From Gibbula magus (taxonomy: Eukaryota > Mollusca > Gastropoda > Trochida > Trochidae): 64,000 nt of DNA. This document shows, one piece after another, positions 25,137-57,700 of the stretch. The stretch is from assembly GCA_936450465.1 (NCBI GenBank), contig OW388297.1:29282387-29346386 (forward strand), read 5' to 3'. Position numbers and translations under genes: made by a program. A model generated the notes under the pieces. It was given only the letters and a program-made list of their open reading frames with translations. It did no database searches and was not told the origin of the DNA. How positions within the stretch are numbered: position 1 is the stretch's first letter; each line of letters starts with the position of its first letter.

Positions 25137-25215
25137 ATGAACCATAACATGGGCACCCACCCCATCAGTGTCGGAAATACATCCTCAGCAGCAAACCATG
25201 TCTCTCAGTCCTCAG
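25137..25215 (+). CDS. RAR: RAR coding exon 1 (A/B region)
   Basis: This exon encodes residues 1-26 plus the first base of codon 27. The transcript exon appears to start at 25094 after TTCTCTATTCAG. The ATG has a favourable context (GGAACCATGA), and an in-frame TAG lies 30 bases upstream. The donor is TCAG|GTAAAT. A 43-bp duplication creates an identical second donor at 25259. The region is Ser/Asn-rich and has no domain. Confidence 0.8.
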
Positions 25216-28200
25216 GTAAATATATCCTCAGCAGCAAACCATGTCTCTCAGTCCTCAGGTAAATATATCCTCAACAGCAAACCTTGTTCATTAGTATGTT
25301 TAACCAATGCCTGGTTTGTATTGCTATTTAGTATCTCTAATAAAGATTTTACCTTACCTTTAAATGTTTTGATTTACATCCTACATATTCAAGGCCGCTA
25401 AGAAACCTCTGAATCTAGAAATTATGTATATTGACATTCCATAAATGTGTGCCTATGTACATTTCCATTAAGTTGTTACCTGTCGTACAACAAGTACTGT
25501 ATTCGCCCACAGTTCTGACGAGCATCCCGAACCAAGCTGCCTACCTCGCCTTCCAGAATGCAGCAGACTCCTACAATGGACAGTTTGCCGTCTTCGATTC
25601 TAAACCGTCCTACATGCCCCATGTCTCCAAAGAGAGTATGTCTGTTTATCTTCATATATCAGCAATTTAACATTTATACTGCTCTTGTCCCTTTGGTCAG
25701 CTGCTTTCTTCATAGTGTTCTATAGCTCAAACATATTTTTATATTAATTTACCAAACTAATGATCAACTGTTATCAACATGATATTGATTTTATTAAATC
25801 AAACATGTATACCCCATTGGGGATTTTCATATCAATTTGAGATTGTTTAGCAATGAAACTTCATATTTATTATGATGTATGAGATACATTTCATTTTGTA
25901 GTAAAATTTATAAAAATGTTTTTATAAAGTCATTAGCATTACATTTTACATTGGCCATAATATAAAAGTACTCACACTTGAGTGTCCTGTGAAATGTAAT
26001 TTTACCTACTTATTTACAGCGCATCTGTACGACAGCCACTGTGGGCTGTACGGGATGCAGAGCTCCCCTAACATGTCACCGTCCCCACCCCCGCCCCCAC
26101 GCATCTACAAACCTTGTGTTGTGTGTAATGACAAGTCGTCCGGCTACCACTACGGGGTCAGCTCCTGTGAGGGCTGCAAGGTACGTTCACTATTTCTATC
26201 ATTCTTTGTAAGGTATTTTACTGACCTTTTGACTGCCAATGATAAAATTGATAAAGTTGTAAACATGTCACTCAATGGATACAAGTGAAGTGCTATTTGA
26301 ATGACAGATGTGAACTCTTATATATAAGAATCTCATAATCAGTGGTATGAATGTTGGTGCTGAGAATACCCCATCCAAGAATGCAGTACGTTTAAATATA
26401 AGATAATGTCATGTTTACTTATCTTGTTAATTTTATGCAAAGTTTCATCTCTGTAATATTCAAATGATACATTGGCATTTGCCTGCACCAATACATGCGG
26501 ATTTTGTGTTATTGTTTAATTGCAAGTGTTTACTGTGTAGAGTTTTACTGCTAATGTTAACTGTGTGCAAGGTTTTACTGCTTGAGAACTTATTGAGGCA
26601 TGAGAACTGTCAAGATGTCATATAGTAACTGTGCTGATACAACTGGTGGTTCTGTGCAGGGTTTCTTCCGGCGGAGTGTCCAGAAGAACATGCAGTACAC
26701 GTGTCACAAGGACAAACACTGCCCCATCAACAAGGTGACACGCAACCGCTGTCAGTACTGCCGTCTTCAGAAGTGCTTTGCTGCCGGCATGTCTAAAGAA
26801 GGTCAGTGGCAGGGTATTTATACTTCTCATTTAGACCCCAGCCTTCTTTGGTGTCTGTCATTCCTTTTCCCAGAATCCATGGGTTGCTGACGTAGAGTTT
26901 CAGATGGTATTGGTTTTACAGAGAACCCATTTTTGACGATGACCTCCTAGTCACACATCACAAGCTCTGTCATAAGTGAATACTGTGCTTCTAACAACCC
27001 ATACTTTTGACATTATTATCCACTTAGCTATCAACATCTCAACATCACTAGCTCTATCATAACTGAATTCTGCAGTTCAAACAACCCATATTTATAACAT
27101 TGAAATCCACTTTGCCATCATCAACTAGACATCACTCTATCATAACTAAATACTATACTAAAATAATCACTAAAAACCTCTTTTCCATCACAGCGGTACG
27201 TAATGACCGGAACAAGAAGCGGAAACCGAAGCCTGAGAGTGCGTCAAGTTCCAGTGAGGACCTGACTGGGGACGACCAGACTCTCATCCAGGATATCCTG
27301 GATGCACACCGCACCACTAGCGTGTCTGAAGAAGCTGACGACGCCTCCTCTTCCTCGGTAATCTTCTCACTTAACTTTCTCCTTTTCTTGAGGATAATGC
27401 TTTCTAAATAACCATTGTAGCAGTGTCACCAGAGTTGGTGTCATATCATGTCAAGGTATATAATATCTATGATAGTGCAACATTTCATGCCCTGATGTTG
27501 TGATGCATGTGCACATGCTCTGTGACAAAATCTTATGCTTAGGTGTTCTATGATGTTACAGTCTGAGCAAGGCACTATAAACGTAGCAATTGAAAGTAGA
27601 TTTAATGTGCTTTATTATACAAATCTTCTCATGTTTCTGTATGTTCTATGCAAGATAGGATGATAAAGAAATGAAAAGAGACTTTAATAAAAACTATGTT
27701 GGCGTTGCAGCGATCCCCTGACGTGAAGGATGAAAAGCAGGAGGGTGGTATACTGTGGGAAAGAATTAGTGAACTCTCCTCCGATGGAGTTGTGAAAATT
27801 GTTGACTTTGCCAAGAAGATTCCTGGATTCTCATCTTTATCCCAGTCAGATCAAATAACATTACTCAAGGCAGCATGCTTAGAAATCATGGTGAGTTCTT
27901 GTGTACCTTACTTCTTATTTACACAGGGAAAATACAGATATTAGACAGCGAACATGTCCAATTAGTTATTTTGTCAATCAAATAGTGTGCATGTATGAAA
28001 ATAATCAGTTGAAAACATTGGGAAAATTAAGTAGTTACAAAAATATCATCTTCTTTTGATGAAGATATTTTTTGATAAACAGAAATATCTTTTCAAAATT
28101 ATTGATACATAAGTGAATGAATAAGTTATTTAAGGCTTTGATAGCATGAATATAATTGCAGAACACATTTGTTTTGGTATACAAGAAAAATTTTATTACT

Positions 28201-31200
28201 TTCAAAGATATTATTTTTTTTATAAAAAAAAAGAAAAGAAAAAAAGGTGAACATTTTCTCAAGAATTTTCAACATGAACTAAAACATTTCTATACAATAT
28301 AAAAACAAATATTATCTAGAAATATTAACAACTTAAATGTACTCACAATGGCTTTTCCTGCATCCTATTTAAGTTATTGATTACCTCTTAACTAGGTTTC
28401 ACCGCAATGCATAACCACATGGCGTTGCAGGCTTTCTCCCTGCCGTAATACAAGCAGCCGCGATATAAGTGAAATAATCTTGAAAGCGGCGTTAAACCCT
28501 ACTTCACCTCACCTTGACTCTTACAGAAACAAAATTTTCTGGATATCAACTTCTTTATTGTATAGATACATTATGTTTCAGAGTGTATCCTTCATCCGGT
28601 GGAAGTTGTTATCCAGAAAATCTTGTTTTGTATACCACTTCTAAATGCCCTTCAAAGACTGGACATTCTGTCAATCACTTACTATTTTTCAATATTTGGT
28701 ATAATACTTTCTTGTTTTAGTGTGAAAAGAATCATGATTGTTGCACTGTATAACGTTTTGTTTTGGTATTCAAGTTCTGTGTCTTGTCCCTATTATGACG
28801 TGACCGTTACATTACATGTTGATATCTCTGTAGATCCTGAGACTGAGTGCGCGGTACGACCTAGACTCAGACAGGATGGTCTTCTCTAACGGTCTTTCAT
28901 TGGACAAGGACCAGTTACAGGAGGGCGGGTTCGGGACATTAACTGGAACTATTTTCAGTTTTGCTGCTTCCCTCAAAGTTATGAACATTGATGAAGCAGA
29001 GTTTGCCATTCTCTCTGCAATTTGTTTAATGAGTGGAGGTAAGTTAGAGTTAGCACTTATATGATATAATTAACCTCAGCTGTGGAGAAGGGCTTTTCGT
29101 TGCAGGTTTCTTGCAAACAATTGTCCTTCGAATTGTTGTAAACCTGATAACTCAGGAGAGATTTCATTCATTTTGTTCCATTTATTTATCCAAGTCTATT
29201 GTTTGATCCCAGACCAATCAATTTAGTTATTGTGAAGTCAAGGTCAAAGCAAAGATTTTGTAACAGTTGTAAGACCATAAATCAAAGAATTTAAGGTTTT
29301 GTTCAAGTTGGTACCAAACTAGCAGTATGAAGTAGCAGTATCTGCTGAAGCCATGCAGTCAAATGTGTTTACCTTCAGATCATTTTCAAGGTCAGGGTTA
29401 GGGTTTTTGTAATAATTTAAGAATAAGTACACTATGGATTCCATATAGACATAAAATTATAGTCATATTGGTGGTAAGTGCTTGTCCATTATCCATCATT
29501 TGTATCGGATTATGTCCCCAGATCGGTCAGGCTTGCAGGACACAGAGAAGATAGAGCAGATGCAGGAACCCCTGCTGGAAGCTCTCAAACACTACACACG
29601 CTCTCGCCGCCAGGACCAGCCTCACATCTTTGCCAAACTACTCATGAAGCTCACAGACCTCCGCAGTATCAGCGTTAAAGGTAGGACCCGATCTAGTCTA
29701 GCTGTCAGCTGTCATATAGTGTATTTAACAGTTTGTACATTTAGCAGCACACAGTGTACTGTAGAGGTTGTCAGTTGTAGGTTTGAATTTAAAAGGTTTA
29801 AGACTTGGTGTAAACAGTTAGCAGTGTCGGTGAGTCACAAGGAAAAGAAAGGATATTGTGTCGAAGTGTAGAGAGGAATTTCATTACAGATAGAATGGTA
29901 ATTTGCATAATGTTCCGCAAATTAATCTTGTCGTTGATAAATCTAATTTCATTGGCTTAGATTGATTTTAATGCCAGGCTTGATTTGTGGAACGTCATCC
30001 TAGCTGGACATCGATGAAGGAGAAATAATGACCAATAGAAAACATCTATAGAGCAATGATTGTAATATGTATCATGCAAATCTACAAGCATTACCTTCAG
30101 TTCAAATCAATGTTATTCAACCAGAGTGTGTTTAGGATGGTAGCTTTTCTAAGTTTTATTCACAAATTTATCATAAAAAAAACAGATGTATCATTGACCA
30201 AGAGCAGTATTAGACCTTAGGTAAGACACAGGGTTGAACTGTCCACATCACATACACAAGAGCAGTATTAGACCTTAGGTAAGTCACAGGGTTGAGCTGT
30301 CCACATCACGTACACAAGAGCAGTATTAGACCTTAGGTAAGTCACAGGGTTAAGCTGTCCACATCACATACACAAGAGCAGTATTAGACCTTAGGTAAGT
30401 CACAGGGTTGAGCTGTCCACATCACGTACACAAGAGCAGTATTAGACCTTAGGTAAGTCACAGGGTTAAGCTGTCCACATAACATACACAAGAGCAGTAT
30501 TAGACCTTAGGTAAGTCACAGGGTTGAACTGTCCACATCACATACACAAGAGCAGTATTAGACCTTATGTAAGTCACAGGGTTGAACTGTCCACATAAAA
30601 TACACAAGAGCAGTATTAGACCTTAGGTAAGTCACAGGGTTGAGCTGTCCACATCACATACACAAGAGCAGTATTAGACCTTAGGTAAGTCACAGGGTTG
30701 AGCTGTCCACATAACATACACAAGAGCAGTGTTAGACCTTAGGTAAGTCATAGGGTTGAGCTGTCCACATCACGTACACAAGAGTAGTATAAGACCTTAG
30801 GTAAGTCACAGGGTTGAGCTGTCCACATCATGTACACAAGAGCAGTATTAGACCTTAGGTAAGTCACAGGGTTAAGCTGTCCACATAACATACACAAGAG
30901 CAGTATTAGACCTTAGGTAAGTCACTGGGTTGAGCTGTCCACATCACGTACACAAGAGCAGTATTAGACCTTAGGTAAGTCACAGGGTTAAGCTGTCCAC
31001 ATAACATACACAAGAGCAGTATTAGACCTTAGGTAAGTCACAGGGTTGAGCTGTCCACATCACGTACACAAGAGCAGTATTAGACCTTAGGTAAGTCACA
31101 GGGTTAAGCTGTCCACATAACATACATAAGAGCAGTATTAGACCTTAGGTAAGTCACAGGGTTGAACTGTCCACATCACATACACAAGAGCAGTGTTAGA

Positions 31201-34200
31201 CCTTAGGTAAGTCACAGGGTTGAGCTGTCCACATCACGTACACAAGAGCAGTATTAGACCTTAGGTAAGTCACAGGGTTGAGCTGTCCACATCACATACA
31301 CAAGAGCAGTATTAGACCTTAGGTAAGTCACAGGGTTGAACTGTCCACATCACATACACAAGAGCAGTATTAGACCTTAGGTAAGTCACAGGGTTGAGCG
31401 GTCCACATCACCTACACAAGAGCAGTATTAGACCTTAGGTAAGTCACAGGGTTGAGCGGTCCACATCACATACACAAGAGCAGTATTAGACCTTAGGTAA
31501 GTCAGGTTGAGTAGTTGCGCATTACATAAATGCTCGTGCGTTCATTTCCCTGCATAGACATCATTTAATTATATATTCATTTTTAACCCTTGCTTCACAA
31601 TTCAGAGCATGGAAATAGAATTTGATGGAACTGATTTGATTCTGTTAAAACATACCATTGTGTTGGATGTATTGACATGTCAAGGATGTGTAATCATGTT
31701 GGAACATCTCACATTGTTGTGCTTTAACAGGACGTATTCACCGTCTGAACCCACTCAGTGCATCTTGTGTCATAGCTTGCTTTATATGCAGTTTAGCTTT
31801 GCTTTCAAATAATAGCTAAGCTTTTTTTCGCATTTTGTTATCATGTTATGTTTTGTGGCTATATATATCTTGCTTTTAGTACAGTTTTGTGATTTTGGTT
31901 TAATCATTCATTATGGGTTTGAGCTCACTACCATAGTTGGTTTGGTACACTGGCATTAATGTACATCACATCTCAACTTGAGAATGAACATGTTTATAAA
32001 TAACAAATCATACACTGAGAAACTCTTTTTTGACATCTACAGGGACATAAGGTTTTGAATCAGTTTTTCAATCGATGGAAAAAAAGAACCGACATTTTCA
32101 TAATGAGAAAGACAACATTATTTGAAGATGACATGATTATTGTAAGAACTTTAGTTGCCACATACATATTGCTAAGTGTGTCCTCCCTGAGTGAGTGAAA
32201 ATTCTCAGAAGCATTCTGGTCCTAACAACAATCAAGTTAACGTCAGTAAATCTTGCTCCCATTTCAAGTTTCCTCCTCAAGTTGAGATGTGAAACACCAT
32301 GTACCCATGTATCGCTTTGCTTGTTTGCTACCTACATGCATACTTACCTACCTACCTCATACCTACATACCTAGCCATCTATCTGCATTGCTCCATATAT
32401 ACATACTGGCTGTTGCCCTCCCTCATCGTCATCTGTCTGTCTCTTCCCATGCTCTAGGTGAAAAGCAGACGCTTCGTTTTGCACTAGACCACTTGGCTAA
32501 TGCCCTCTCTCTCCTGGAGGCACCAGTCTCCACCCCTGAGATCAGCCACATCAAGACTGAGCCCTACTCACATCCACTAGACGAACCCTCCTGCAGTGGA
32601 ATTTCATCCACAGTTAACTTGCCAAACTATGACCCGCATGCCAAGTCGTTGTCACAGCAACAGGGAGGGATGGAGAGACCGGGCCCGTCAGGGTCGATGG
32701 ATTATGGACGACAGCTCTCCACGGAGTACCTGGCGTCATCAAGCTCGCTGGGTCCTCTGCCAGACTCATCCATCCCCTCACCTTTAGGGATGGGACTTCC
32801 TCCTATGCAGCTCAGTCCAAACCAAATCTCTTCCGTCATGGCGTCCATCGAGTCCCCGTCGCCCTCCAGTCTTCCCTCATACCCGAATGCACCATCTCCC
32901 AGCATGCCAAGCTACTTGACTGGACTATCGCCAACTCTGTCTCCAAACTTCACTTTAGCTCCGTCAACTGTAAGCTCCATACTGACATCACCGATTCCAT
33001 CCCCAGGAGTGGACCACAATGTCCTGGCTAATATCCACACTACAATGTCGGACAGGAATGGACAAGCCTCCAACACTGTAAACAGGCAGATGGCAATGAC
33101 TTCCCAGGTCAACACAAGCCAAGCTGACATCATGTTACGCAACGGTCATATGATGGCAAGTTCCCAAATGTCGCGAGCTTCTGATGCCGAGAACTACAAG
33201 CAGTCATACAATGGCGACCGTAACAACAGCAACAGCTACAGCAACAACTGTCTATCCTTTATGGGTCTCCCCACGAATCTGAGTGCCACACCGTTCTCTC
33301 TGGGGGATGCAGTGGCCTCCAGCACCTCTGATCATCACACCCCACTCAGCAAGATCATAGCAGGGGCCATGACAGACACCATGCAGATCTAGATATATAG
33401 TCAGCACTTGGAAAACTCAATGATCAAACATTTACTTTGAGAACAAGTGTTACTGCCATGCAGATATCAGATTAGCCAAATGAAAGTGTGACGATCACTG
33501 GAGACAGAGTTTGGTGCCTCCATGTTGGGAGAGGGGCGGTTGGGTCAACATTGGGCAGGGGTCAAAGGTCACTGGATCTACCTCCCCATCCTTGCTTTAT
33601 TTGCGCTGCAAGATAACCTGCTCTAGTGCCTCATTAATTTTTGGTTGCTTTTTGCCTTTATCATGCTTTGTTATGCTTTCCCTGTAGTTGCATTGAACAA
33701 TTGCATTCTTTGAACTAAATGGCATATGTTATCCAGAGTTATTTATTGTACTGGGTCAATTTGATCTTTTTATGTTTGGGGTTATTTTAGTTGCTGTTTA
33801 ATTTTATTCTTTAATGAATTAATGCTTCATTCTTATTGATACAGATTTGATGAAATTATAATTTATGTCATAACCAAGCAATATATAAAGGTATGCAAAA
33901 CGATTTTAGCCTATACAAAACCATATTTATTTTGCATTTTTTCATTTTTCTTAAATAACAATTTTATTCATCAAATTTGTTTTTGTTTTATCCTTACATT
34001 TGCTAACCAACATAACAACTACTCACTTTCAACAACTTACATAATAACATGACTGAATTTATCAGCATCCAGAATAAAACTACTGTAAAAGTGGACAAGA
34101 TTACGACCCTCTGCCAAATCATTTAATGCAGTTGAGAATATAGATGTTTATATGACATGATAAAGTTATGAAATGATCATTGCATAATTTTATCGGGTGT

Positions 34201-36615
34201 ACATATATCCCCAACCTTGATATATTTACTATGTTGTTTGTAGATGACTATACATGTACATATACAGCATGTTATGGTAGAGTAGTGTTTGCACCTGTTA
34301 AAATGTTTCTTTATTTTACATGTATCTTCAGATTTATATGAAATATTTAGTTTATAACGTAGTTGTATTCTTTAGTATTCAAACTGTTACTTCTGGTCCA
34401 ATTTATTGTTTTATGTTTCATACCGGTGTTCAATATCTTATATTGTTTTAAATTCTTATATTTAACTTAGTGTATGCATTTTCTTCAAATATCTGTAAAT
34501 AATGTTGACCATATTGATTTACGCTTCACAACTTAACATCAACAACTTTCAATGATTTTTCAAGCTCTTGAATTTAAAAGAGAGATGAAAAAGTATTATA
34601 TATCCCAACTTGTATAGTTTTTATAACATGTGTATAAACATCTGGTGTCGGATATGTTTACTTTTATATTCTCTTACTATTTGTTAAGTTTCATGTATAC
34701 ACAATTAACTGGTTTGAAGATTTATCATTTGAAACAAAGAATGTCAAACAACAGAGGAATAGTGGATATTCAAGATATATCTGATTTATATACACTGAAT
34801 TAGATCAAATCATATTCTGATATAAATATATTTAAATTTGTTACGTCACTGTTCCAACTGAAGTGGAGTCCATGCTTTATATAGATCCTGATAATCTGGT
34901 ATAGGATGTTAAATTAATCCTCCAACAATATAAAGATACTGTAATGAAGGTTATTTTGGTCAAATTTCTGTAAAAAAGAAGTTAAACTTGACATGCTGAA
35001 TAATAATAGAGTAGCCTAACCATCAATTGTCTTGCAAATAAGTACTGTTTTGTCATGAACTATTGTAAATTTTCAATTTGACTTCAGCCTCATACTTTCA
35101 GTGTGGTAGTTCAGGGCAAAACTTTACTAATTTGCAGGACACATGATTGTTGAGACTTCTAGAAGTTGAATTCTTCAGAAAAGCAAGACTTTTGTTAACA
35201 GATTCTTTATTTTGGAAAGCACATGTGGGAAGACTAAAGTCTGTACTGTAGATGAGCTAGTAAATACTCACGTTTCTATTCATAAATCTTGCTTTTCTTA
35301 CTGACAAACATCACTATGTGAGAATAAACTGTTATCAGAGATGTTGATACATGATGTATTAATTGACATGAACTCCATATAATAGATGTAATTTATGTAG
35401 GGAAATAAAAGTTGACTATGAAAATTTGGTTTATGTGTTATTCATCATCCATTCGTTCTTCATCTTGACAGTAAGTAATATTTGTGTTGATTGAATTGTA
35501 TTAAGAATCGAATAAATTTTATTTATTTAATCAACCCTTTTGATAAAGATGATATGAAAGTAGTAAAAGTGCATGGAGAGTTATATAACTAGTTTCTTAT
35601 AAAGATGGAACCAATCTGTCACTAGCATATAGTATAGTATACACAGTGTTTGATGGGAATGTACAGCTTCTTTGATATGAATCTTCAGGAAGTAGCGATG
35701 GTATGACGTATCTGTACATGTATACCCATGATATGGTGTTATATTCTCCCAGTTGTGTTTGCCAGCACAAGCCATACAAATCAGAGAATAATAAAGTGCT
35801 GCCTCAATGGTTGAGTTACCTCCCCTTCATGATTCTTTCATTGTTAATTTAGGTGTTGAAGAGATGAAGAATGAGAACTATTTTATGGATAAACCTCTTT
35901 TTTCTGTTACTTACTTTCACCTTAAATACTTTGCAAAGACGTTGGCGCTATGTCATCATCTCTACCCCATTAAGACAGATATTGTCTTAATTTTCCCTTC
36001 CTCTAGTCTAGTTGATCATTTCTAGAGCAATACGAATACGCTTCAATATAAACATCCTATAAAATTAATATATTTAATATATTCATGATTGGCTAAATAT
36101 TAATATGTTATTGAGTTCTTGATAGCAATTTTAGCTTTGTAGATTCTGTAATTGTTTGAATCCTAACCTTGATTATGGTTTCTTTGGATTGGACTATATT
36201 CCTCTCTGATAGTGCTGTATATCCAAGTGGCACATGCTGGTAATACGCAACTCCATGGCTCTATGACTATGAACATACCCTCAGTTGATCCTGACATGAA
36301 AGATGAGAATGATATGGAAAGTAGATTAATACTCTATGAAACAGGGACTTGTAGAACAATTGAATAAGTTGACCAATTATTGGTGTAAGGTAAGTATCAG
36401 AAAATGGTGGACAAAGAAAAACTTTGCTAATCTATGTTGAAAGGTAAGTAATTGCATTTAAAACTGAATATGAAAGCTGTTGATATCACTTGTTTTATTT
36501 ACTTCTGATTTCAGGAGCAGAACGAGTGTTGCATTTACGTCTGGAGATGCCTGGAGAGTTGCCTCCCTTGATATTGGAAATGTTGGACAGAGCAGAGAAT
36601 GTGTGTATACCTTGA
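25137..36615 (+). CDS. RAR: retinoic acid receptor (NR1B), canonical isoform, spliced
   Basis: This is a ligand-regulated-type nuclear receptor that, in this family, binds AGGTCA repeats as a heterodimer with RXR. The coding exons are 25137-25215, 25513-25635, 26020-26180, 26660-26801, 27194-27357, 27711-27890, 28834-29038, 29522-29680 and 36515-36615, together 1314 bases and 437 residues, near the usual RAR length of about 450. Residues 1-97 are the variable A/B region. The zinc-finger domain follows, with C100/C103/C117/C120 and C136/C142/C152/C155 and P-box CEGCK. A Ser/Lys-rich hinge leads to the ligand-binding domain from about residue 224. The AF-2 core is at residues 423-428. All introns have GT-AG ends and consistent phases. 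A TAG in frame at 25107 fixes the start if the exon at 25094 is used. Residues equivalent to the retinoate carboxylate contacts (Lys in [10 protein letters not shown]286, R290, S301) are kept. An alternative last exon is listed separately. Confidence 0.95.
25181..25287 (+). repeat. 43-bp tandem duplication spanning the exon 1 donor
   Basis: Units 25181-25223 and 25224-25266 are identical, and a third, partial and diverged copy follows to about 25287. Each full unit contains the end of coding exon 1 and its GTAAAT donor, so the exon has two identical donors 43 bases apart. Because 43 is not a multiple of three, the distal donor changes the frame of the main ATG but gives an open frame for the ATG at 25198. 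Confidence 0.95.
25513..25635 (+). CDS. RAR: RAR coding exon 2 (A/B region)
   Basis: The acceptor is TATTCGCCCACAG and the donor is AAAGAGA|GTATGT. With the phase-1 base from exon 1 the frame reads [20 protein letters not shown] and onwards without interruption. It encodes residues 27-68 of the N-terminal A/B region. No domain is recognised in this part. Confidence 0.85.
26020..26180 (+). CDS. RAR: RAR coding exon 3 (first zinc finger)
   Basis: A proline-rich stretch (SPSPPPPPR) precedes the first zinc module with C100, C103, C117 and C120. The exon ends at the P-box lysine (CEGCK), the conserved intron position between the two fingers of RAR-type receptors. The acceptor is CTTATTTACAG and the donor is GCAAG|GTACGT. 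Confidence 0.97.
26660..26801 (+). CDS. RAR: RAR coding exon 4 (second zinc finger)
   Basis: The exon starts [10 protein letters not shown] and carries C136, C142, C152 and C155 of the second zinc module. It ends with the C-terminal extension AAGMSKE. The sequence is very close to vertebrate RAR, including the [17 protein letters not shown] core. The acceptor is TTCTGTGCAG and the donor is GAAG|GTCAGT. Confidence 0.97.
27194..27357 (+). CDS. RAR: RAR coding exon 5 (hinge)
   Basis: It begins [15 protein letters not shown], the basic RAR hinge with a probable nuclear localisation signal, and continues with an acidic Ser-rich stretch into the first helix of the ligand-binding domain ([12 protein letters not shown]). 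Residues 169-223. The acceptor is TTTCCATCACAG and the donor is TCCTCG|GTAATC. Confidence 0.95.
27711..27890 (+). CDS. RAR: RAR coding exon 6 (ligand-binding domain, helices 3-5)
   Basis: Residues 224-283 include [20 protein letters not shown], the nuclear-receptor signature of helices 3-4, with the lysine that forms one half of the coactivator charge clamp. [11 protein letters not shown] keeps the lysine that contacts retinoate in vertebrate RAR. The acceptor is TTGGCGTTGCAG and the donor is CATG|GTGAGT. Confidence 0.96.
28385..28505 (+). repeat. dispersed repeat with GCGGCGTTAAAC-type tail, copy 2
   Basis: This copy lies in intron 6 of RAR. It matches 22790-22925 and ends AAAGCGGCGTTAAACCC followed by a short ACTTCACCTCACC-type tail. 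It looks like a SINE or LINE 3' end inserted in the sense orientation. Confidence 0.65.
28834..29038 (+). CDS. RAR: RAR coding exon 7 (ligand-binding domain, helices 5-8)
   Basis: Residues 284-351. [20 protein letters not shown] aligns with the vertebrate helix 5 and beta-turn; both arginines (R286, R290) and the serine (S301) that hold the retinoate carboxylate are kept. The exon ends in ICLMSG followed by a split aspartate codon. The acceptor is ATATCTCTGTAG and the donor is GGAG|GTAAGT. Confidence 0.96.
29522..29680 (+). CDS. RAR: RAR coding exon 8 (ligand-binding domain, helices 9-11)
   Basis: Residues 352-405 include [15 protein letters not shown], the RAR helix 9, and end in [10 protein letters not shown] plus the first base of a glycine codon. 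The donor AAAG|GTAGGA is phase 1 and can join either last exon in frame (32458 or 36515). It lies 0.5 kb before the minisatellite of intron 8. Confidence 0.96.
30201..31510 (+). repeat. 58-bp minisatellite in RAR intron 8
   Basis: About 23 head-to-tail copies of a 58-bp unit are present, with few substitutions between units. Nearly every unit includes CCTTAGGTAAGTCACAGGG, in which TTAG|GTAAGT matches the splice-donor consensus; one unit has TATGTAAGT instead. The array sits between exon 8 and the first alternative last exon, in the sense orientation. It is non-coding. Confidence 0.97.
32458..33392 (+). CDS. RAR: RAR alternative last exon, Ser/Pro-rich tail without AF-2
   Basis: A strong acceptor (TCTTCCCATGCTCTAG) opens a frame of 310 codons ending in TAG, in the phase that exon 8 supplies. 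Joined to exons 1-8 it gives 715 residues. After Gly405 the sequence becomes [20 protein letters not shown] instead of the canonical AERVL... and no AF-2 of the form hydrophobic-hydrophobic-x-Glu-hydrophobic-hydrophobic follows. The rest is rich in Ser, Pro, Asn and Met, probably disordered, with a sumoylation consensus IKTE at residues 436-439. Base composition is coding-like, with GC higher than the flanks. I do not recognise a homologous domain. The isoform would bind DNA but lack the usual coactivator surface. It could instead be the main form, or an exon joined otherwise; transcripts would decide. Confidence 0.85.
33393..35440 (+). other. probable 3'UTR of the long RAR isoform
   Basis: AT-rich non-coding sequence follows the stop of the alternative exon. 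A direct repeat of nuclear-receptor half-sites with 1-bp spacing (GGGTCA-A-AGGTCA) occurs at 33559-33571. AATAAA at 35404-35409 followed by TTGGTTTATGTGTTA is a plausible poly(A) site; earlier AATAAA copies occur near 34074 and 35323. Confidence 0.45.
35404..35409 (+). terminator. candidate poly(A) signal, long RAR isoform
   Basis: AATAAA is followed within 30 bases by a GT-rich stretch (TTTGGTTTATGTGTTA), the usual layout of a cleavage and polyadenylation site. It would end a 2-kb 3'UTR. Confidence 0.4.
36515..36615 (+). CDS. RAR: RAR canonical last exon (helix 11 end and AF-2 helix 12)
   Basis: The acceptor TTACTTCTGATTTCAG opens a 33-codon frame. With exon 8 it reads [20 protein letters not shown] and continues LEMLD, matching the end of vertebrate RAR almost residue for residue. 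L423-I424-x-E426-M427-L428 is the AF-2 core that binds coactivators when helix 12 closes. The protein ends nine residues later, so this isoform has almost no F domain. The exon is too short for ordinary ORF calling and lies 3.1 kb beyond the stop of the alternative last exon. Confidence 0.95.
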
Positions 36616-48700: not shown

Positions 48701-51700
48701 GGGGGATCACTTTTCATTAACCCCCCGATGTGTAAGGGGAACCAGACGGCGTTCTGCCCAGGAAGGAGGGGGTACATACAGTCTGTTTCGAAATTCTCTC
48801 AGTCCAACATTCTTACTTGAACTTTTATATTCACATGTAGTCAATGACATCAACTGTTTGTAATGCATAATATTATAATTGTATATTCGTTTTTCCATAT
48901 TCATTATGGAATTCGTATTAGGATTCATACCGAAATCCGCCATTGTTTAGATTAAGAGGTTTACCATCCATACATATTATTGTCCTCTCTCGTCTATGAA
49001 ATGTTTTTATTTTCATTTTATTTAATGTGCATCTACGTTTTAGACTTTGTATTGTCCTGATTTGCAATATGTAATATACTATTGAAATAAGTGTCTGGAT
49101 ATACATCGTGTGCAAGGTCTTTTATTCTGATGCTCGTTGATATATGAATCGCGATTAACTCTTACTTATAACGGTATTCCTGTATTGTGGAAGTTATAGA
49201 TCCATGCAAGTAAAATGCTTTGTTGATGTTAAACTTCTTTATTATATGAAAGGTGACATTTCAGTATCCTGTTAAAATATAATATTGATCAATAATATAG
49301 AAGTGATTGTAATAGGTTAGCAGTCCATACCATAATGTCCCATGTTATGAGGTAAATACATTAATCATCTCCGTTTTGTGACTTTCAGTTCGTAAAGTCT
49401 GGATTCTAATTCAAAGTAAATGAATTAAGATTCGTAAGATGTTATTGGTTTTTTTTTGTTCATTCTGTCAGTTAATTAAACATATATATTCTCACCACGG
49501 ATCTTTGAGGGCAGTTTGTCATATGCTTTATACATGACGTATACATGTTCTTGGTTTACTACCGTTCTCTAGCCTGTTATTACGTATGTCTCTGGGATAT
49601 GTGAATTTATACCCAACTGAAAATTTTCAATGATAAATCATGTTTCGAGATGAAGTTAAGGTCAGGATGTTATGAAGCATCTTTGAGTACAACTAAAGAT
49701 GATGGCACGCTGTCAATAAGGAAGCTTTCTTTAGAGAAGAGCCTTTGTATCCGACATCAACCCCGCACTGCATGGTTGATACGTGTTCCTGAATGTTCTC
49801 TGGTTAACTAGTCCCTGTGTGGAGCTGTGCTGAGTACGTGGCATGTCAGCATTGAAAACCATCAACTTTTGAAACATTTAACATTCGAACTCCTTGTTGC
49901 ATTATATAGTTAAGAACTATTTCCTAAAATGTTCTACACAGAAAGTAGGTCATCCGAACGAAGATTCTTTCTTTTAAAATGTATTGTCTGAGATCAACGT
50001 TTTATCTTTTTTCCTTTTCTTAGATCGACAGAGAATAGTAATTTCATTTTTTGCTGTCTTGAGTAAATTCTCTTTGCTTCTCCTAAACGAACCACGACAG
50101 TAATCGTGTAACTGTGTTATGTCTTAGCAAAAAGAACTATTGATAACATGCAGGCAATGTCCACCTTTTTACAAAGTTTTAACAGAATTTAAGATTGATC
50201 CAAACAGCTAGTAGTGGTCTAAATTGCATTTGATACAAAACTGTAAAAGCAGCTTGCATTTTGTAACAATTGCTTTGAAAAAAATGTGAATTCAGTTTTA
50301 AACACAAAAAACAACGCCTCAACACGCCAATATTGGAATTGAAACGGAATCTAATTTACTCCAGCGCAATATGCATTATTTCTTAGTGGAATTGATACAC
50401 TACTTCCAGTACAGTATTCGCGGAGTACGCGTTAGTCGAATTGACCCAAGGAAATACCTTTCAGTCTCATATATAGTGACTGAAGTAATGGTGTTAATTG
50501 AAAATGAAAAGACTAATTTAAAGGAGCTGTGGTGTTTTTGTAGGACGATCTTCCCACAGAGGGTACGCAAGTCAAATCTTCTCACAGAGAGTACGCAAGT
50601 CATATTTTCTCACAGAGGGTACGCAAGTGATATCTCTCCACAGAGGGTACGCAAGTCAAATCTTCCCACAGAGAGTACGCAAGTCATATCTTCCCACAGA
50701 GAGTAAGCAAGTCATATCTTCCCACAGCGAGTACGCAAGTCATATCTTCTCACAGAGGGTAAGCAAGTCATATCTTCCCACAGAGAGTACGCAAGTCAAA
50801 TCTTCCCACAGAGGGTACGCAAGTCATATCTTCCCAAAGAGGGTACGCAAGTCAAATCTTTCCACACAGGGTACGCAAGTCATATCTTCCCACAGAGGGT
50901 ACGCAAGTCAAAACTTCCCACAGAGAGTAAGCAAGTCATATCTTCCCACAGAGGGTACGCAAGTGATATCTCTCCACAGAGGGTACGCAAGTCAAATCTT
51001 CCCACAGAGAGTACGCAAGTCATATCTTCCCACAGAGAGTAAGCAAGTCATATTTCCCACAGAGAGTACGCAAGTCATATCTTCTCACAGAGGGTAAGCA
51101 AGTCATATCTTCCCACAGAGAGAACGCAAGTCAAATCTTCCCACAGAGGGTACGCAAGTCATATCTTCCCACAGAGGGTACGCAAGTCAAATCTTCCCAC
51201 AGACGGTACGCAAGTCAAATCTTCCAACAGAGGGTACGCAAGTCATATCTTCCAACAGAGGGTACGCAAGTCAAATCTCTTCCCACAGAGAGTACGCAAG
51301 TCATATCTTCTCACAGAGGGTAAGCAAGTCATATATTACCACAGAGGGTACGCAAGTCAAATCTTCAAACAGAGGGTAAGCAAGACATATCTTCCAACAG
51401 AGGGTACGCAAGTCATATCTTCCCACAGAGAGTACGCAAGTCATATCTTCTCACAGAGAGTCCGCAAGTCAAATCTTCCCACAGAGGGTACGCAAGTCAT
51501 ATCTTCCCACAGAGAGTACGCAAGTCAAATCTTCTCACAGAGAGTACGCAAGTCATATCTTCTCACAGAGGGTACGCAAGTCATATGTTCCCACAGAGAG
51601 TACGCAAGTCATATCTTCCCACATAGGGTACGCAAGTCAAATCTTCCCACAGAGGGTACGCAAGTCAAATCTTCCCACAAAGGGTACGCAAGTCATATCT

Positions 51701-54700
51701 TCCCACAGAGGGTACGCAAGTCATATCTTCCTGAAGAGGGTACGCAAGTCAAATCTTCCCACAGAGGGTACGCAAGTCAAATCTTCTCACAGAGAGTACG
51801 CAAGTCATATCTTCTCACAGAGAGTACGCAAGTCATATGTTCCCACAGATAGTACGCAAGTCATATCTTCCCACAGAGAGTACGCAAGTCATATCTTCCC
51901 ACAGAGAGTACGCAAGTCATATCTTCTCACAGAGAGTACGCAAGTCATATGTTCCCACAGAGGGTACGCAAGACATATCTTCCCACAGAGAGTACGCAAG
52001 TCAAATCTTCCCACAGAGAGGACGCAAGTCAAATCTTCCCACAAAGGGTACGCAAGTCATATCTTCCCACAGAGGGTACGCAAGTCATATCTTCCCACAG
52101 CGGGTACGCAAGTCAAAACTTCCCACAGAGGGTACGCAAGTCAAATCTTCCCACAGAGGGTACGCAAGTGATATCTCTCCACAGAGGGTACGCAAGTCAT
52201 ATCTCCCCACAGAGGGTACGCAAGTCATATCTCCCAACAGAGGGTACGCAGGTCATATCCCCCCACAGAGGGCACGCAAGTCATATCTTCCCAGAGAGAG
52301 TAAGCAAGTCAAATCTTCCCACAGAGGGTACGCAAGTGATATCTCTCCACAGAGGGTACGCAAGTCATATCTCCCCACAGAGGGTACGCAAGTCATATCT
52401 TCCCACATAGGGTACACAAGTCAAATCTTCCCACAGCGGGTACGCAAGTCAAATCTTCCCACAAAGGGTACGCAAGTCATATCTTCCCACAGAGGGTACG
52501 CAAGTCATATCTTCCTACAGAGGGTACGCAAGTCAAATCTTCCCACAGAGGGTACGCAAGTCAAATCTTCTCACAGAGAGTACGCAAGTCATATCTTCTC
52601 ACAGAGAGTACGCAAGTCATATGTTCCCACAGATAGTACGCAAGTCATATCTTCCCACAGAGAGTACGCAAGTCATATGTTCCCACAGATAGTACGCAAG
52701 TCATATCTTCCCACAGAGAGTACGCAAGTCATATCTTCCCACAGAGAGTACGCAAGTCATATCTTCTCACAGAGAGTACGCAAGTCATATCTTCCCACAG
52801 AGGGTACGCAAGACATATCTTCCCACAGAGAGTACGCAAGTCAAATCTTCCCACAGAGAGGACGCAAGTCAAATCTTCCCACAAAGGGTACGCAAGTCAT
52901 ATCTTCCCACAGAGGGTACGCAAGTCATATCTTCCCACAGCGGGTACGCAAGTCAAAACTTCCCACATAGGGTACGCAAGTCAAATCTTCCCACAGAGGG
53001 TACGCAAGTGATATCTCTCCACAGAGGGTACGCAAGTCATATCTCCCCACAGAGGGTACGCAAGTCATATCTCCCCACAGAGGGTACGCAAGTCATATCT
53101 CCCCACAGAGGGCACGCAAGTCATATCTTCCCAGAGAGAGTAAGCAAGTCATATCTTCTCACAGAGAGTACGCAAGTCATATCTTCCCACAGAGGGAAAG
53201 CAAGTCAAATCTTCCCACAGAGAGTACGCAAGTCAAATCTTCAAACAGAGGGTAAGCAAGACATATCTTCCAACAGAGGGTACGCAAGTCATATCTTCCC
53301 ACAGAGAGTACGCAAGTCATATCTTCTCACCGAGAGTACGCAAGTCAAATCTTCCCACAGAGGGTACGCAAGTCATATCTTCCCACAGAGAGTACGCAAG
53401 TCAAATCTTCTCACAGAGAGTACGCAAGTCATATCTTCTCACAGAGGGTACGCAAGTCATATGTTCCCACAGAGAGTACGCAAGTCATATCTTCCCACAT
53501 AGGGTACGCAAGTCAAATCTTCCCACAGAGGGTACGTAAGTCATATCTTCCCACAGAGGGTACGCAAGTCATATCTTCCGACAGAGGGTACGCATGTCAA
53601 ATCTTCCCACAGAGGGTACGCAAGCCAAATCTTCTCACAGAGAGTACGCAAGTCATATCTTCTCACAGAGAGTACGCAAGTCATATCTTCCGACAGAGGG
53701 TACGCATGTCAAATCTTCCCACAGAGGGTACGCAAGTCATATCTTCCCACAGAGAGTACGCAAGTCATATCTTCTCACAGAGAGTACGCAAGTCATATGT
53801 TCCCACAGAGGGTACGCAAGACATATATTCCCACAGAGAGTACGCAAGTCAAATCTTCCCACAGAGAGGACGCAAGTCAAATCTTCCCACAAAGGGTACG
53901 CAAGTCATATCTTCCCACAGAGGGTACGCAAGTCATATCTCCCCACAGAGGGTACGCAAGTCATATCTCCCCACAGAGGGCACGCAAGTCATATCTTCCC
54001 AGAGAGAGTAAGCAAGTCATATCTTCTCACAGAGAGTACGCAAGTCATATCTTCCCACAGAGGGAAAGCAAGTCAAATCTTCCCACAGAGAGTACGCAAG
54101 TCAAATCTTCAAACAGAGGGTAAGCAAGACATATCTTCCAACAGAGGGTACGCAAGTCATATCTTCCCACAGAGAGTACGCAAGTCATATCTTCTCACCG
54201 AGAGTACGCAAGTCAAATCTTCCCACAGAGGGTACGCAAGTCATATCTTCCCACAGAGAGTACGCAAGTCAAATCTTCTCACAGAGAGTACGCAAGTCAT
54301 ATCTTCTCACAGAGGGTACGCAAGTCATATGTTCCCACAGAGAGTACGCAAGTCATATCTTCCCACATAGGGTACGCAAGTCAAATCTTCCCACAGAGGG
54401 TACGTAAGTCATATCTTCCCACAGAGGGTACGCAAGTCATATCTTCCGACAGAGGGTACGCATGTCAAATCTTCCCACAGAGGGTACGCAAGCCAAATCT
54501 TCTCACAGAGAGTACGCAAGTCATATCTTCTCACAGAGAGTACGCAAGTCATATCTTCCGACAGAGGGTACGCATGTCAAATCTTCCCACAGAGGGTACG
54601 CAAGTCATATCTTCCCACAGAGAGTACGCAAGTCATATCTTCTCACAGAGAGTACGCAAGTCATATGTTCCCACAGAGGGTACGCAAGACATATATTCCC

Positions 54701-57700
54701 ACAGAGAGTACGCAAGTCAAATCTTCCCACAGAGAGGACGCAAGTCAAATCTTCCCACAAAGGGTACGCAAGTCATATCTTCCCACAGAGGGTACGCTAG
54801 TCATATCTCCCCACAGAGGGTACGCAAGTCATATCTACCCACAGAGGGTACGCAAGTCGTATCTTCCCACAGAGAGTAAGCAAGTCATATCTTTTCACAG
54901 AGAGTACGCAAGTCATATCTCCCCACAGAGGGTACGCAAGTCATATCTTCCCACAGAGGGTACGCAAGTCATATCTCCCCACAGAGGGTAAGCAAGTCAT
55001 ATCTTTTCACAGAGAGTACGCAAGTTATATCTCCCCACAGAGGGTACGCAAGTCATATCTCCCCACAGAGGGTACGCAAGTCATATCTTCCCACAGAGGG
55101 TACGCAAGTCATATCTCCCCACAGAGGGTACGCAAGTCATATCTCCCCACAGTGGGTACGCAAGACATATCTTCCCAGAGAGAGTAAGCAAGTCATATCT
55201 TCTCACAGAGAGTACGCAAGTCATATCTTCTCACAGAGAGTACGCAAGTCATATCTTCCAACAGAGGGTACGCAAGTCATATCTCCCCACAGAGGGTACG
55301 CAAGTCATATCTACCCACAGAGGGTACGCAAGTCGTATCTTCCAACAGAGAGTAAGCAAGTCATATCTTTTCACAGAGAGTACGCAAGTCATATCTCCCC
55401 ACAGAGGGTACGCAAGTCATATCTTCCCACAGAGGGTACGCAAGTCATATCTCCCCACAGAGGGTACGCAAGTCATATCTTCCCAGAGAGAGTAAGCAAG
55501 TCATATCTTCTCACAGAGAGTACGCAAGTCATATCTTCTCACAGAGAGTACGCAAGTCATATCTTCCAACAGAGGGTACGCAAGTCATATCTTCCCACAG
55601 AGGGTACGCAAGTCATATCTCCCCACAGACCGTTCGTCAAAATCGCTTTTTTCGCAAAAAAACAATATAGTAATTACTAATTCCTGGGACTTTTTATTAG
55701 GAAAAGGCGGATACTTTTAGCCTTTATATATTAATCCATGAAATATCGTTATATAACATGACGGAAACATGTTTCTTGGCATGAGGTGGTTAAACTAGTC
55801 ATCTAATTGACCTGAGATTTTGATAGCAAGCAGAAGTCATTGGAAATTGATCAAAACTAGTTGTAAATCGCCACTTCCGTGGTTTCGCAGGGGCAATAGA
55901 CGGAGCAGTCTCTTTGGCTACACCATTGACAGGGGAGTTATAATGGTACATAGTTTCCTGAGGAAACACCCCAGGGGTAATATATATATTGAGTGTCCGA
56001 ACATTCAGCCTGGGTGATCGAGGATAGTCTCCCCACTGTTACAGGAATACTCCGTGTAAAACTAAATTTGATTGAAAAAGATGAGATATTACTATTAAAC
56101 ACAGTAAAAGTGATAGAGAATGTCAAGTACAATACATGAAAATATATTCCCTAAAATCAGTGTTTTTCGTCTTGTCGACCACCATATAAAATACTTCAAA
56201 AGACGTCCAAATATTCAAACACTTCCATATAGATGAAAAGACAACTTATGAAGTACGTTCCAATCACATATGTATAAATGTAATATTTCTGGAGGAGTAT
56301 TGATCCCGTTCGTGTGTTCAGCTCACGTCTTCTATGTTGCATTCTGTCGTGTTGCTGGGCGAGTTGGGGGGCTTTCCATAAACTGACGGCAGAAAATCAA
56401 ATAAGAAATTATGAGAATTCACATCTCATGTACTTAAGATTTAAAATATAGTTCCATAGTGCACATGAGTTTCAAAAATCAAATGGTGAATCTGGACGCA
56501 ACAAATAGCTGTTTTTACCTTAACAGTAAATTCAGAACAATCAAAATAGCTGTTATTTGCAGTAAATTCTTAATAAAAAACATTGTTTTCTCTATATTAA
56601 ATGATATAAAGTACCCTGCATTTTGTGGAGAAATTTGGTCAAAAGTGACAGACGCCGAGAAAGAGGATAATCGCTTAAGAATGAAAAATATAAAGACAAG
56701 ATGTTTGGAAACAACTTCCTTATTGCCGATAACACAACGTTAATTAATGAGTCTAAGACACAGGCGCCAGCCCCTTAATATACACCTATGTATATCTACC
56801 TAGTACCTACCTATGTAACATATAAAGAAGGTATGACACTGCCGCCATTTTGAATGCTGGCATAGGACCGGAACTGGTTTGCTGGGTCAAATACGCCTTT
56901 AAACATTCGTAGACTGATCCAAGTTTACATTTCCGGTCCTATGCCAGGATTCAAAATGGCGGCAATGTCATACCTTCTTTATATGTTACATAGGTAGGTA
57001 GATATACGTAGGTGTATATTTAGGGTCTGGCGCCTGTGGTCTAAGACTGTTCCTTTACCAGGAAGCACCTTGCTGCAGAGGACTGTACAAACATATACTC
57101 CTAAACATAATCTTCAAAGACATTGTTATCCCGAAATCTAGGCTTCCATTAGAAAGGATTTTCACAAATTTAAAATCATTTTTGTTACTCTTTGTTATAC
57201 ATTCACATGATTGTCCATAACCAAGGTAGAAATCCTTCGGCTCCGAGATTAGCGGAACCATATTCTCCTGCATAAAGTCGAACCCCATATTCTTGTCTCA
57301 AGTCAAAACCAAATCTTCCTGCATGGGGTCTGTATATGATAATTCTTTTAGTATCGGCACAGTCAACTGCAATTTTAAGAAATCAAACAGTCAAATGTGT
57401 CTATGCACAAGCAATAACTGGCCCCAGACTGACCTCACGTGCCCAGTGGTCAGGTGAAGAGAGGACACGAGTGGTCACATCAAAGTGTCCGAACCAGAGA
57501 CCGGGGCAGGATCCCTCAATCAATACTAGTCACGTGACGGGCATCGACTCCACTTTCCTTATAACGTATATGATTGAGTCGCACTTTCATTATGAAATTA
57601 ATCCCTAAACGACAAGAACGCACTGTCGTTCAGTCCAAGACTATATTTCTCCTGATTGGAGACCTCATGGCGTGAAGATAAATCGGAACAGTTCGAGAGG

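What the first reader, a model, noticed from the sequence alone, without database searches (positions are those of the whole stretch)
29522..36615. Retinoic acid receptor with two alternative last exons, one keeping and one removing AF-2
Exon 8 ends in phase 1 and can be joined in frame to 32458 (310 codons) or to 36515 (canonical helix 11/12, 32 residues). Both acceptors are good. The upstream choice deletes helix 12 and its AF-2 and adds a long Ser/Pro-rich tail. Such a product should still bind DNA and probably RXR but not recruit coactivators in the usual way, so it could act as a built-in repressor or use a different activation surface. I know of no described RAR with this arrangement.
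Basis: partly seen in the sequence, partly recalled or inferred. Interest (0 to 1): 0.9.

Follow-up and report, generated by a model that had tools for sequence, protein, structure and literature searches.

The report
Snail retinoid receptor with two endings
A retinoic acid receptor gene, likely from a sea snail, carries two alternative last exons, one encoding the usual activation helix and one that swaps it for a 310-residue tail also found in other snails' receptors; the tailed form is predicted to keep DNA binding and would likely act as a built-in repressor.

Summary
Confirmed. The window holds a complete retinoic acid receptor (RAR) gene: eight shared coding exons (25137-29680), then exon 9' (32458-33392, 310 residues, candidate poly(A) signal at 35404) or the canonical last exon (36515-36615, helix 11/12 with AF-2). 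Exon 9' is coding: 0 of 1000 shuffles reached its open length, and two abalone (Haliotis) RAR records carry the same tail at 49% identity, first 23 residues identical. Diverged versions, starting at the same residue, occur in four heterobranch snail records. The tail was seen in 6 of 57 retrieved proteins, all gastropod; my paper searches found no description. The junction lies just after the complete dimerisation heptad (LLMKLTDL), which mammalian TRalpha2, the nearest precedent, breaks. AlphaFold puts an exon 9' helix where helix 12 normally sits, with modest confidence; the strict AF-2 motif is in 0 of 7 tails. Most likely the long form is an AF-2-less, RXR-competent repressor isoform. Repression, RXR binding and splicing in this species are untested: no RNA was available.

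The parts
25137..25215 (+). RAR coding exon 1 ([13 protein letters not shown]...)
   Evidence: tblastn match to Haliotis N-terminus; joined in frame with donor
25513..25635 (+). RAR coding exon 2 (A/B region)
   Evidence: tblastn match to P0002
26020..26180 (+). RAR exon 3, first zinc finger of the DBD (P-box CEGCK|G)
26660..26801 (+). RAR exon 4, second zinc finger of the DBD
27194..27357 (+). RAR exon 5, hinge
27711..27890 (+). RAR exon 6, start of ligand-binding domain
28834..29038 (+). RAR exon 7, ligand-binding domain
29522..29680 (+). RAR exon 8, to the end of the dimerisation heptad LLMKLTDL and RSISVK; ends in phase 1
   Evidence: heptad by comparison with TRalpha in PMC9266318
30199..31504 (+). 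58-bp minisatellite (22.5 copies) in intron 8 holding 21 copies of AGGTAAGT, a 5' splice-site-like word
   Evidence: effect on splicing untested
32458..33392 (+). alternative last exon 9' (coding part), 310-residue tail and stop
33393..35425 (+). predicted 3' UTR of exon 9'; candidate poly(A) signal AATAAA at 35404 (other candidates 34073, 35323, 35511, 35790); the end is approximate
   Evidence: prediction only
36515..36615 (+). canonical last exon 9: helix 11/12, AF-2 PPLILEML, stop; candidate poly(A) signals 36630 and 36665
   Evidence: 74% identity to Gigantopelta P0005

Best explanation
This is a retinoic acid receptor gene with two alternative last exons, and the upstream one, whose tail is also present in other gastropod RARs, is predicted to be spliced on to make a receptor that keeps its DNA-binding domain and likely its RXR pairing but has the activation helix replaced, so that it would act as a built-in repressor of the canonical form. 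Shown by sequence: exons 1-8, two in-frame phase-1 acceptors, loss of the strict AF-2 motif, the homologous tail as RAR C-terminus in two Haliotis and four heterobranch records, and the whole heptad LLMKLTDL kept before the junction. Predicted: the choice is between ending at exon 9', with its own poly(A) signal, and skipping it to reach exon 9; a helix encoded by exon 9' sits at the helix 12 site without the AF-2 glutamate motif. Inferred: the long form occupies RAR/RXR sites, cannot recruit coactivators through AF-2 and holds corepressor, perhaps helped by a SUMO-type motif and the conserved C-terminal motif.
For: Coding and conserved. Same attachment residue in 6 retrieved RARs and similar start and end blocks in heterobranchs (shuffles at least as good: 0, 4, 77, 143 of 20000 for the start; 3, 24, 11 of 10000 for the end). 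No strict AF-2 motif in 0 of 7 tails examined has been found, i.e. it is absent from all seven. Heptad intact, whereas in TRalpha2 it is split and its restoration raises RXR and corepressor binding and the dominant-negative effect (PMC9266318, passages). Model: LBD confident, exon 9' helix 366-380 at the helix 12 site (control with canonical P0005). PsiK-x-E motif in 7 of 7 tails, 87 of 2000 shuffled window tails.
Against: No RNA evidence in this species; isoform labels in Haliotis and Biomphalaria are annotators' names, and I did not see the canonical ending of those genes. The exon 9' helix has pLDDT only 65-66 and the C-terminal motif is not docked (pLDDT about 30-40). The strict CoRNR pattern fits 0 of 7 tails and the relaxed one occurs in 399 of 2000 shuffles; eh1 fits 1 of 7. 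The PsiK-x-E sites lie at different places in the two lineages, so they are not one aligned site. An acidic residue near the clamp position is conserved, so a weak activation helix is not excluded. The tail was not recovered from caenogastropods, limpets or bivalves. Nothing here measures repression.
Confidence: 0.6

Rival explanations
1. The tail is an activation domain: the long isoform is a ligand-independent, perhaps phosphorylation-controlled activator that trades AF-2 for a Ser/Pro-rich surface.
For: Tail is Ser/Pro-rich and mostly disordered with conserved SP-containing blocks [15 protein letters not shown] and [11 protein letters not shown]; disordered S/P/Q-rich regions often activate (recalled).
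Against: The most conserved pieces are the two ends, not the Ser/Pro middle; PsiK-x-E motifs in 7 of 7 tails are more usual in damping (recalled).
Confidence: 0.25
2. Exon 9' encodes a swapped helix 12 that still works with a different set of coregulators, so both isoforms activate but on different targets.
For: Exon 9' helix modelled at the helix 12 site; an acidic residue (Asp or Glu) is conserved in 7 of 7 tails within LDH/LDC/LEC.
Against: No strict AF-2 motif in any of 7 tails; read without gaps, the structural alignment places His (Cys in heterobranchs), not the acidic residue, at the glutamate position, though the register is good to about one residue only.
Confidence: 0.1
3. Exon 9' is rarely or never used in this species: a decayed or cryptic last exon.
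For: No reads available; many terminal exons in gene models are unsupported (general knowledge).
Against: Open frame, third-position GC, strong acceptor and whole-length conservation with Haliotis argue for selection on the protein.
Confidence: 0.05
4. The 32458 exon belongs to a separate gene and is not part of the RAR.
For: None found beyond the absence of RNA data.
Against: In 6 of 57 retrieved proteins a homologous tail is fused to an RAR at the same residue.
Confidence: 0.02

Closest known systems
TRalpha2 (mammalian THRA splice isoform)
   Same: Alternative C-terminus by RNA processing that removes helix 12 and its AF-2 motif and adds about 120 residues; a weak dominant-negative receptor (PMC9266318, passages).
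   Different: TRalpha2 uses a splice site inside exon 9 and a downstream exon, breaks the ninth heptad (LLMK/VTDL), is described as mammalian and overlaps Rev-erbalpha. Here it is an RAR, the extra last exon lies upstream of the canonical one, the heptad is whole, the tail is 310 residues and it occurs in vetigastropod and heterobranch snails.
GRbeta and ERbeta2/cx (recalled, no call)
   Same: Alternative last exon alters helix 12 and gives inhibitory isoforms.
   Different: Short replacement tails, steroid receptors, vertebrate.
Canonical mollusc RARs (oyster CgRAR, Nucella, Reishia, Patella)
   Same: Same gene and the same 33-residue canonical ending; nine coding exons in oyster too (PMC5398557, passages).
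   Different: No tailed form is reported in the passages I read; oyster cloning found no confirmed isoform except a possible T-box one.

Membership tests
Retinoic acid receptor (NR1B) | C4 zinc-finger DBD with P-box CEGCKG plus nuclear receptor LBD | tested here: met
   Pfam zf-C4 1.6e-32 and Hormone_recep 1.1e-30; CEGCKG in the translation
Retinoic acid receptor (NR1B) | Closer to RARs than to other nuclear receptors | tested here: met
   Best solved-structure sequences are RARgamma, RARbeta and Platynereis RAR, 1e-134 to 8e-90, ahead of TR, RXR and LXR; no tree was built
Retinoic acid receptor (NR1B) | Binds retinoic acid | not testable with these tools
   Mollusc RARs are reported not to (PMC6947571, PMC4388693, PMC12965858; passages)
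TRalpha2-type AF-2-less isoform | Alternative in-frame C-terminus without the helix 12 AF-2 motif | tested here: met
   (sequence level; transcript not seen)
TRalpha2-type AF-2-less isoform | Ninth heptad broken by the splice | tested here: not met
   LLMKLTDL lies whole in exon 8; TRalpha2 breaks LLMK/VTDL. So it is not filed as a TRalpha2 orthologue
TRalpha2-type AF-2-less isoform | Dominant-negative activity | not testable with these tools
   needs reporter assays
AF-2 core in the long form | Hydrophobic pair, any residue, Glu, hydrophobic pair | tested here: not met
   strict pattern in 0 of 7 tails
CoRNR box (corepressor motif) | L/I-x-x-I/H-I-x-x-x-I/L (PMC4554918) | tested here: not met
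   0 of 7 tails; LSKIIAGAM differs at the last position, heterobranchs also at the fourth; a relaxed pattern fits 6 of 7 but also 399 of 2000 shuffles
eh1 (Groucho/TLE-binding) motif | [FYH]-x-[IVM]-x-x-[ILM]-[ILMV] (pattern recalled) | tested here: not met
   not in the window; 1 of 7 tails (Biomphalaria FSIGQLI)

The most novel reading that the evidence does not exclude
In gastropods, whose RAR is reported not to bind retinoids, the receptor's on/off switch has moved from hormone to RNA processing: choosing between two last exons swaps the coactivator-binding helix 12 for a conserved non-activating helix plus a tail with SUMO-type and corepressor-like motifs, and in this species the choice is tuned by an intron minisatellite carrying 21 strong 5' splice-site decoys.
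Probability: 0.2. Interest if true: 0.85.

Novelty: new variant of a known kind. Interest (0 to 1): 0.62.

Why it matters
How mollusc RARs work without binding retinoids is open (PMC4388693 says more work is needed; passage). A conserved AF-2-less isoform gives a testable answer: output set by isoform ratio. It would be an invertebrate counterpart of TRalpha2, apparently independent of it, that keeps the dimerisation heptad TRalpha2 lacks, and so should be a cleaner repressor. It also means that reporter tests made on one cloned mollusc RAR form may have missed part of the gene's output.

Tried and rejected
Chance frame or separate gene: rejected. C-terminal motif as a self-docking corepressor box: the model does not dock it and the strict pattern fails, so it stays a lead. 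eh1/Groucho motif: fits Biomphalaria only. LxxLL in the first helix: Bulinus only (LRDLL), and 403 of 2000 shuffles hold one; dropped. AF-2 in disguise (FALDHL, FALDCL): unresolved, kept as a rival. The tail against solved structures (best E 0.11, unrelated protein) and Pfam (0 families at E up to 1): nothing. Other endings: none of the caenogastropod, limpet, bivalve, chiton or annelid records retrieved has the tail; candidate lists were capped at about 8000 per search and records are clustered at 90%, so this may be real absence or missing annotation. Exon duplication as the origin of 9': weak likeness by eye only, not tested. Literature: ten searches, seen as listings; passages read in seven papers. 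None describes an RAR with an alternative last exon. Key mollusc RAR papers were not read: PMC4197984 is not held; Andre 2019 and Urushitani 2013 were not looked up. Oyster work reports that all-trans retinoic acid raises RAR and RXR expression (PMC8060629, abstract), which is not binding but does not favour a wholly ligand-blind receptor.

Full report
Observation. The window contains a whole RAR coding region on the + strand. Eight shared coding exons run from the ATG at 25137 to 29680; exon 8 (29522-29680) ends in phase 1. Two acceptors join in frame: 32458, giving 310 further codons and a stop at 33390-33392, and 36515, giving 32 further codons with helix 11/12. The joined canonical protein is 437 residues and the long one 715. 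The best solved-structure relatives of the canonical form are RARgamma, RARbeta and the Platynereis RAR.

The upstream exon is coding. Its frame is far longer than shuffles give and has the core's third-position GC, while the flanking DNA is AT-rich. A protein search with exon 8 plus tail returned Haliotis rubra 'isoform X2' (P0001) and Haliotis rufescens 'isoform X1' (P0002), covering the entire query at 53% identity. In the tail alone identity is 49%, concentrated in blocks: the first 23 residues (23 of 23), [26 protein letters not shown] and the C-terminal [12 protein letters not shown]. tblastn places the P0001 tail on 32457-33389 of the window at E 2e-67, 45% identity with gaps counted.

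Depth. Four heterobranch RAR records (Bulinus P0003, Elysia marginata P0004, Biomphalaria pfeifferi 'isoform X1, partial' P0006, Bradybaena P0052) have long tails starting at the same residue, with GEKQ in three of these four (CETL in Bradybaena), then an L-D/E-C-L/I helix-like stretch, and, in the three that are complete, an end with IxQLIGGAMKIEP. Shuffles of their tails matched the window's start block as well in 0, 4, 77 and 143 of 20000 trials, and the end block in 3, 24 and 11 of 10000 (P0006 was not tested for the end, being cut off there). So the exon is most simply one inherited exon, present before vetigastropods and heterobranchs split; Biomphalaria and Bradybaena are weak for the start block taken alone. 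Of the 57 proteins retrieved in three searches (endings), 6 have the tail, all gastropod; 14 named gastropod records have the canonical ending; one (Batillaria P0011) has a third, short ending; none of the other 36, five of them unnamed, has the tail. Both endings occur within the genus Elysia (marginata long, chlorotica canonical). I did not see the canonical ending of the Haliotis genes; the isoform labels only suggest it. All of these are database models; I saw no reads.

What the swap does. Exon 8 encodes LLMKLTDL, the equivalent of the TR ninth heptad, so this part of the dimer surface is retained. In TRalpha2 the splice breaks this heptad; RXR and corepressor binding fall, and restoring it raises both and the dominant-negative effect (PMC9266318, passages). 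By analogy the gastropod long form is predicted to be a stronger inhibitor than TRalpha2. The strict AF-2 motif is absent from all 7 tails examined. An AlphaFold model of P0001 (alignment of 38 of the 57 proteins) has a confident LBD, a helix at 366-380 encoded by exon 9' (blocks at pLDDT 65 and 66) and an otherwise mostly disordered tail. VIA-align carries that helix on to the helix 12 end of solved receptors (375 to RARalpha 415 in 3kmr and others); 47 of the 50 listed rows reach model residue 374 or beyond. The control, canonical Gigantopelta P0005, gives helix 12 at 428-434 (blocks at 60 and 54), aligned in the expected register, 435 to 415. So helix 12 is probably replaced rather than just lost. 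This is a prediction of modest confidence; I had no coordinates to check contacts.

Motifs. A PsiK-x-E motif occurs in 7 of 7 tails (IKTEP in the window, IKKEP in both Haliotis, MKIEP in three heterobranchs, IKGEN in Biomphalaria), at different places in the two lineages; 87 of 2000 shuffled window tails hold one. In nuclear receptors such sites are often SUMO sites that damp activation (recalled). The C-terminal LSKIIAGAM resembles the CoRNR box (consensus seen in PMC4554918, passages) but fails it at the last position, and a relaxed version is common by chance (399 of 2000). These are leads, not evidence.

Splice control. Exon 9' has candidate poly(A) signals of its own (five AATAAA between 33392 and 36514; the one at 35404 is followed by a T- and GT-rich stretch), so the likely choice is between ending at 9' and skipping it. 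Intron 8, upstream of 9', holds a 58-bp minisatellite with 21 copies of AGGTAAGT, 21 of the 24 on the window's + strand. Such decoys could bias the choice; whether they do is untested, and whether the array is conserved is unknown.

Known or new. Mollusc RARs are reported not to bind or respond to retinoids (PMC6947571, PMC4388693, PMC12965858; passages), although oyster RAR and RXR expression responds to retinoic acid (PMC8060629, abstract and passages). Oyster RAR cloning reported nine exons and no confirmed isoform except a possible T-box one (PMC5398557, passages). No paper found describes an alternative last exon in an RAR, with the limit that several key papers are not in the library. 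I rate this a new variant of a known kind: nuclear receptors that lose AF-2 through an alternative C-terminus, best known from TRalpha2.

Noticed in passing
window 30199-31504: 58-bp minisatellite, 22.5 copies, in intron 8; each unit bears a near-perfect 5' splice-site word, 21 AGGTAAGT in all.
   Followed up: partly
window 50548-55629: 28-bp tandem satellite, about 181 copies, whose + strand frames hold long open stretches; the many listed ORFs are a repeat effect, not genes.
   Followed up: partly
window 61835-62296: + strand open frame with a Receptor L domain (Pfam PF01030, E 7.5e-13), as in EGF- and insulin-type receptors; start of a neighbouring gene's exon.
   Followed up: partly
window 25175-25287: 43-bp tandem duplication (2.6 copies) that copies the end of RAR exon 1 together with its splice donor; use of the second donor would add 43 bases and shift the frame.
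   Followed up: no
P0011 (Batillaria attramentaria RAR record): A third, short ending after the same junction, GRDSVSRESIASVVVKSELPSAHS..., with a PsiK-x-E motif; could be a caenogastropod relic of the tail or a gene-model artefact.
   Followed up: no
P0052 (Bradybaena similaris RAR record): Diverged LBD with a long tail and a Ser-Met-Gln repeat; possibly a lineage-specific paralogue.
   Followed up: no
window 58012-58570 and 58849-59113: 145-bp tandem repeat family in two nearby arrays.
   Followed up: no
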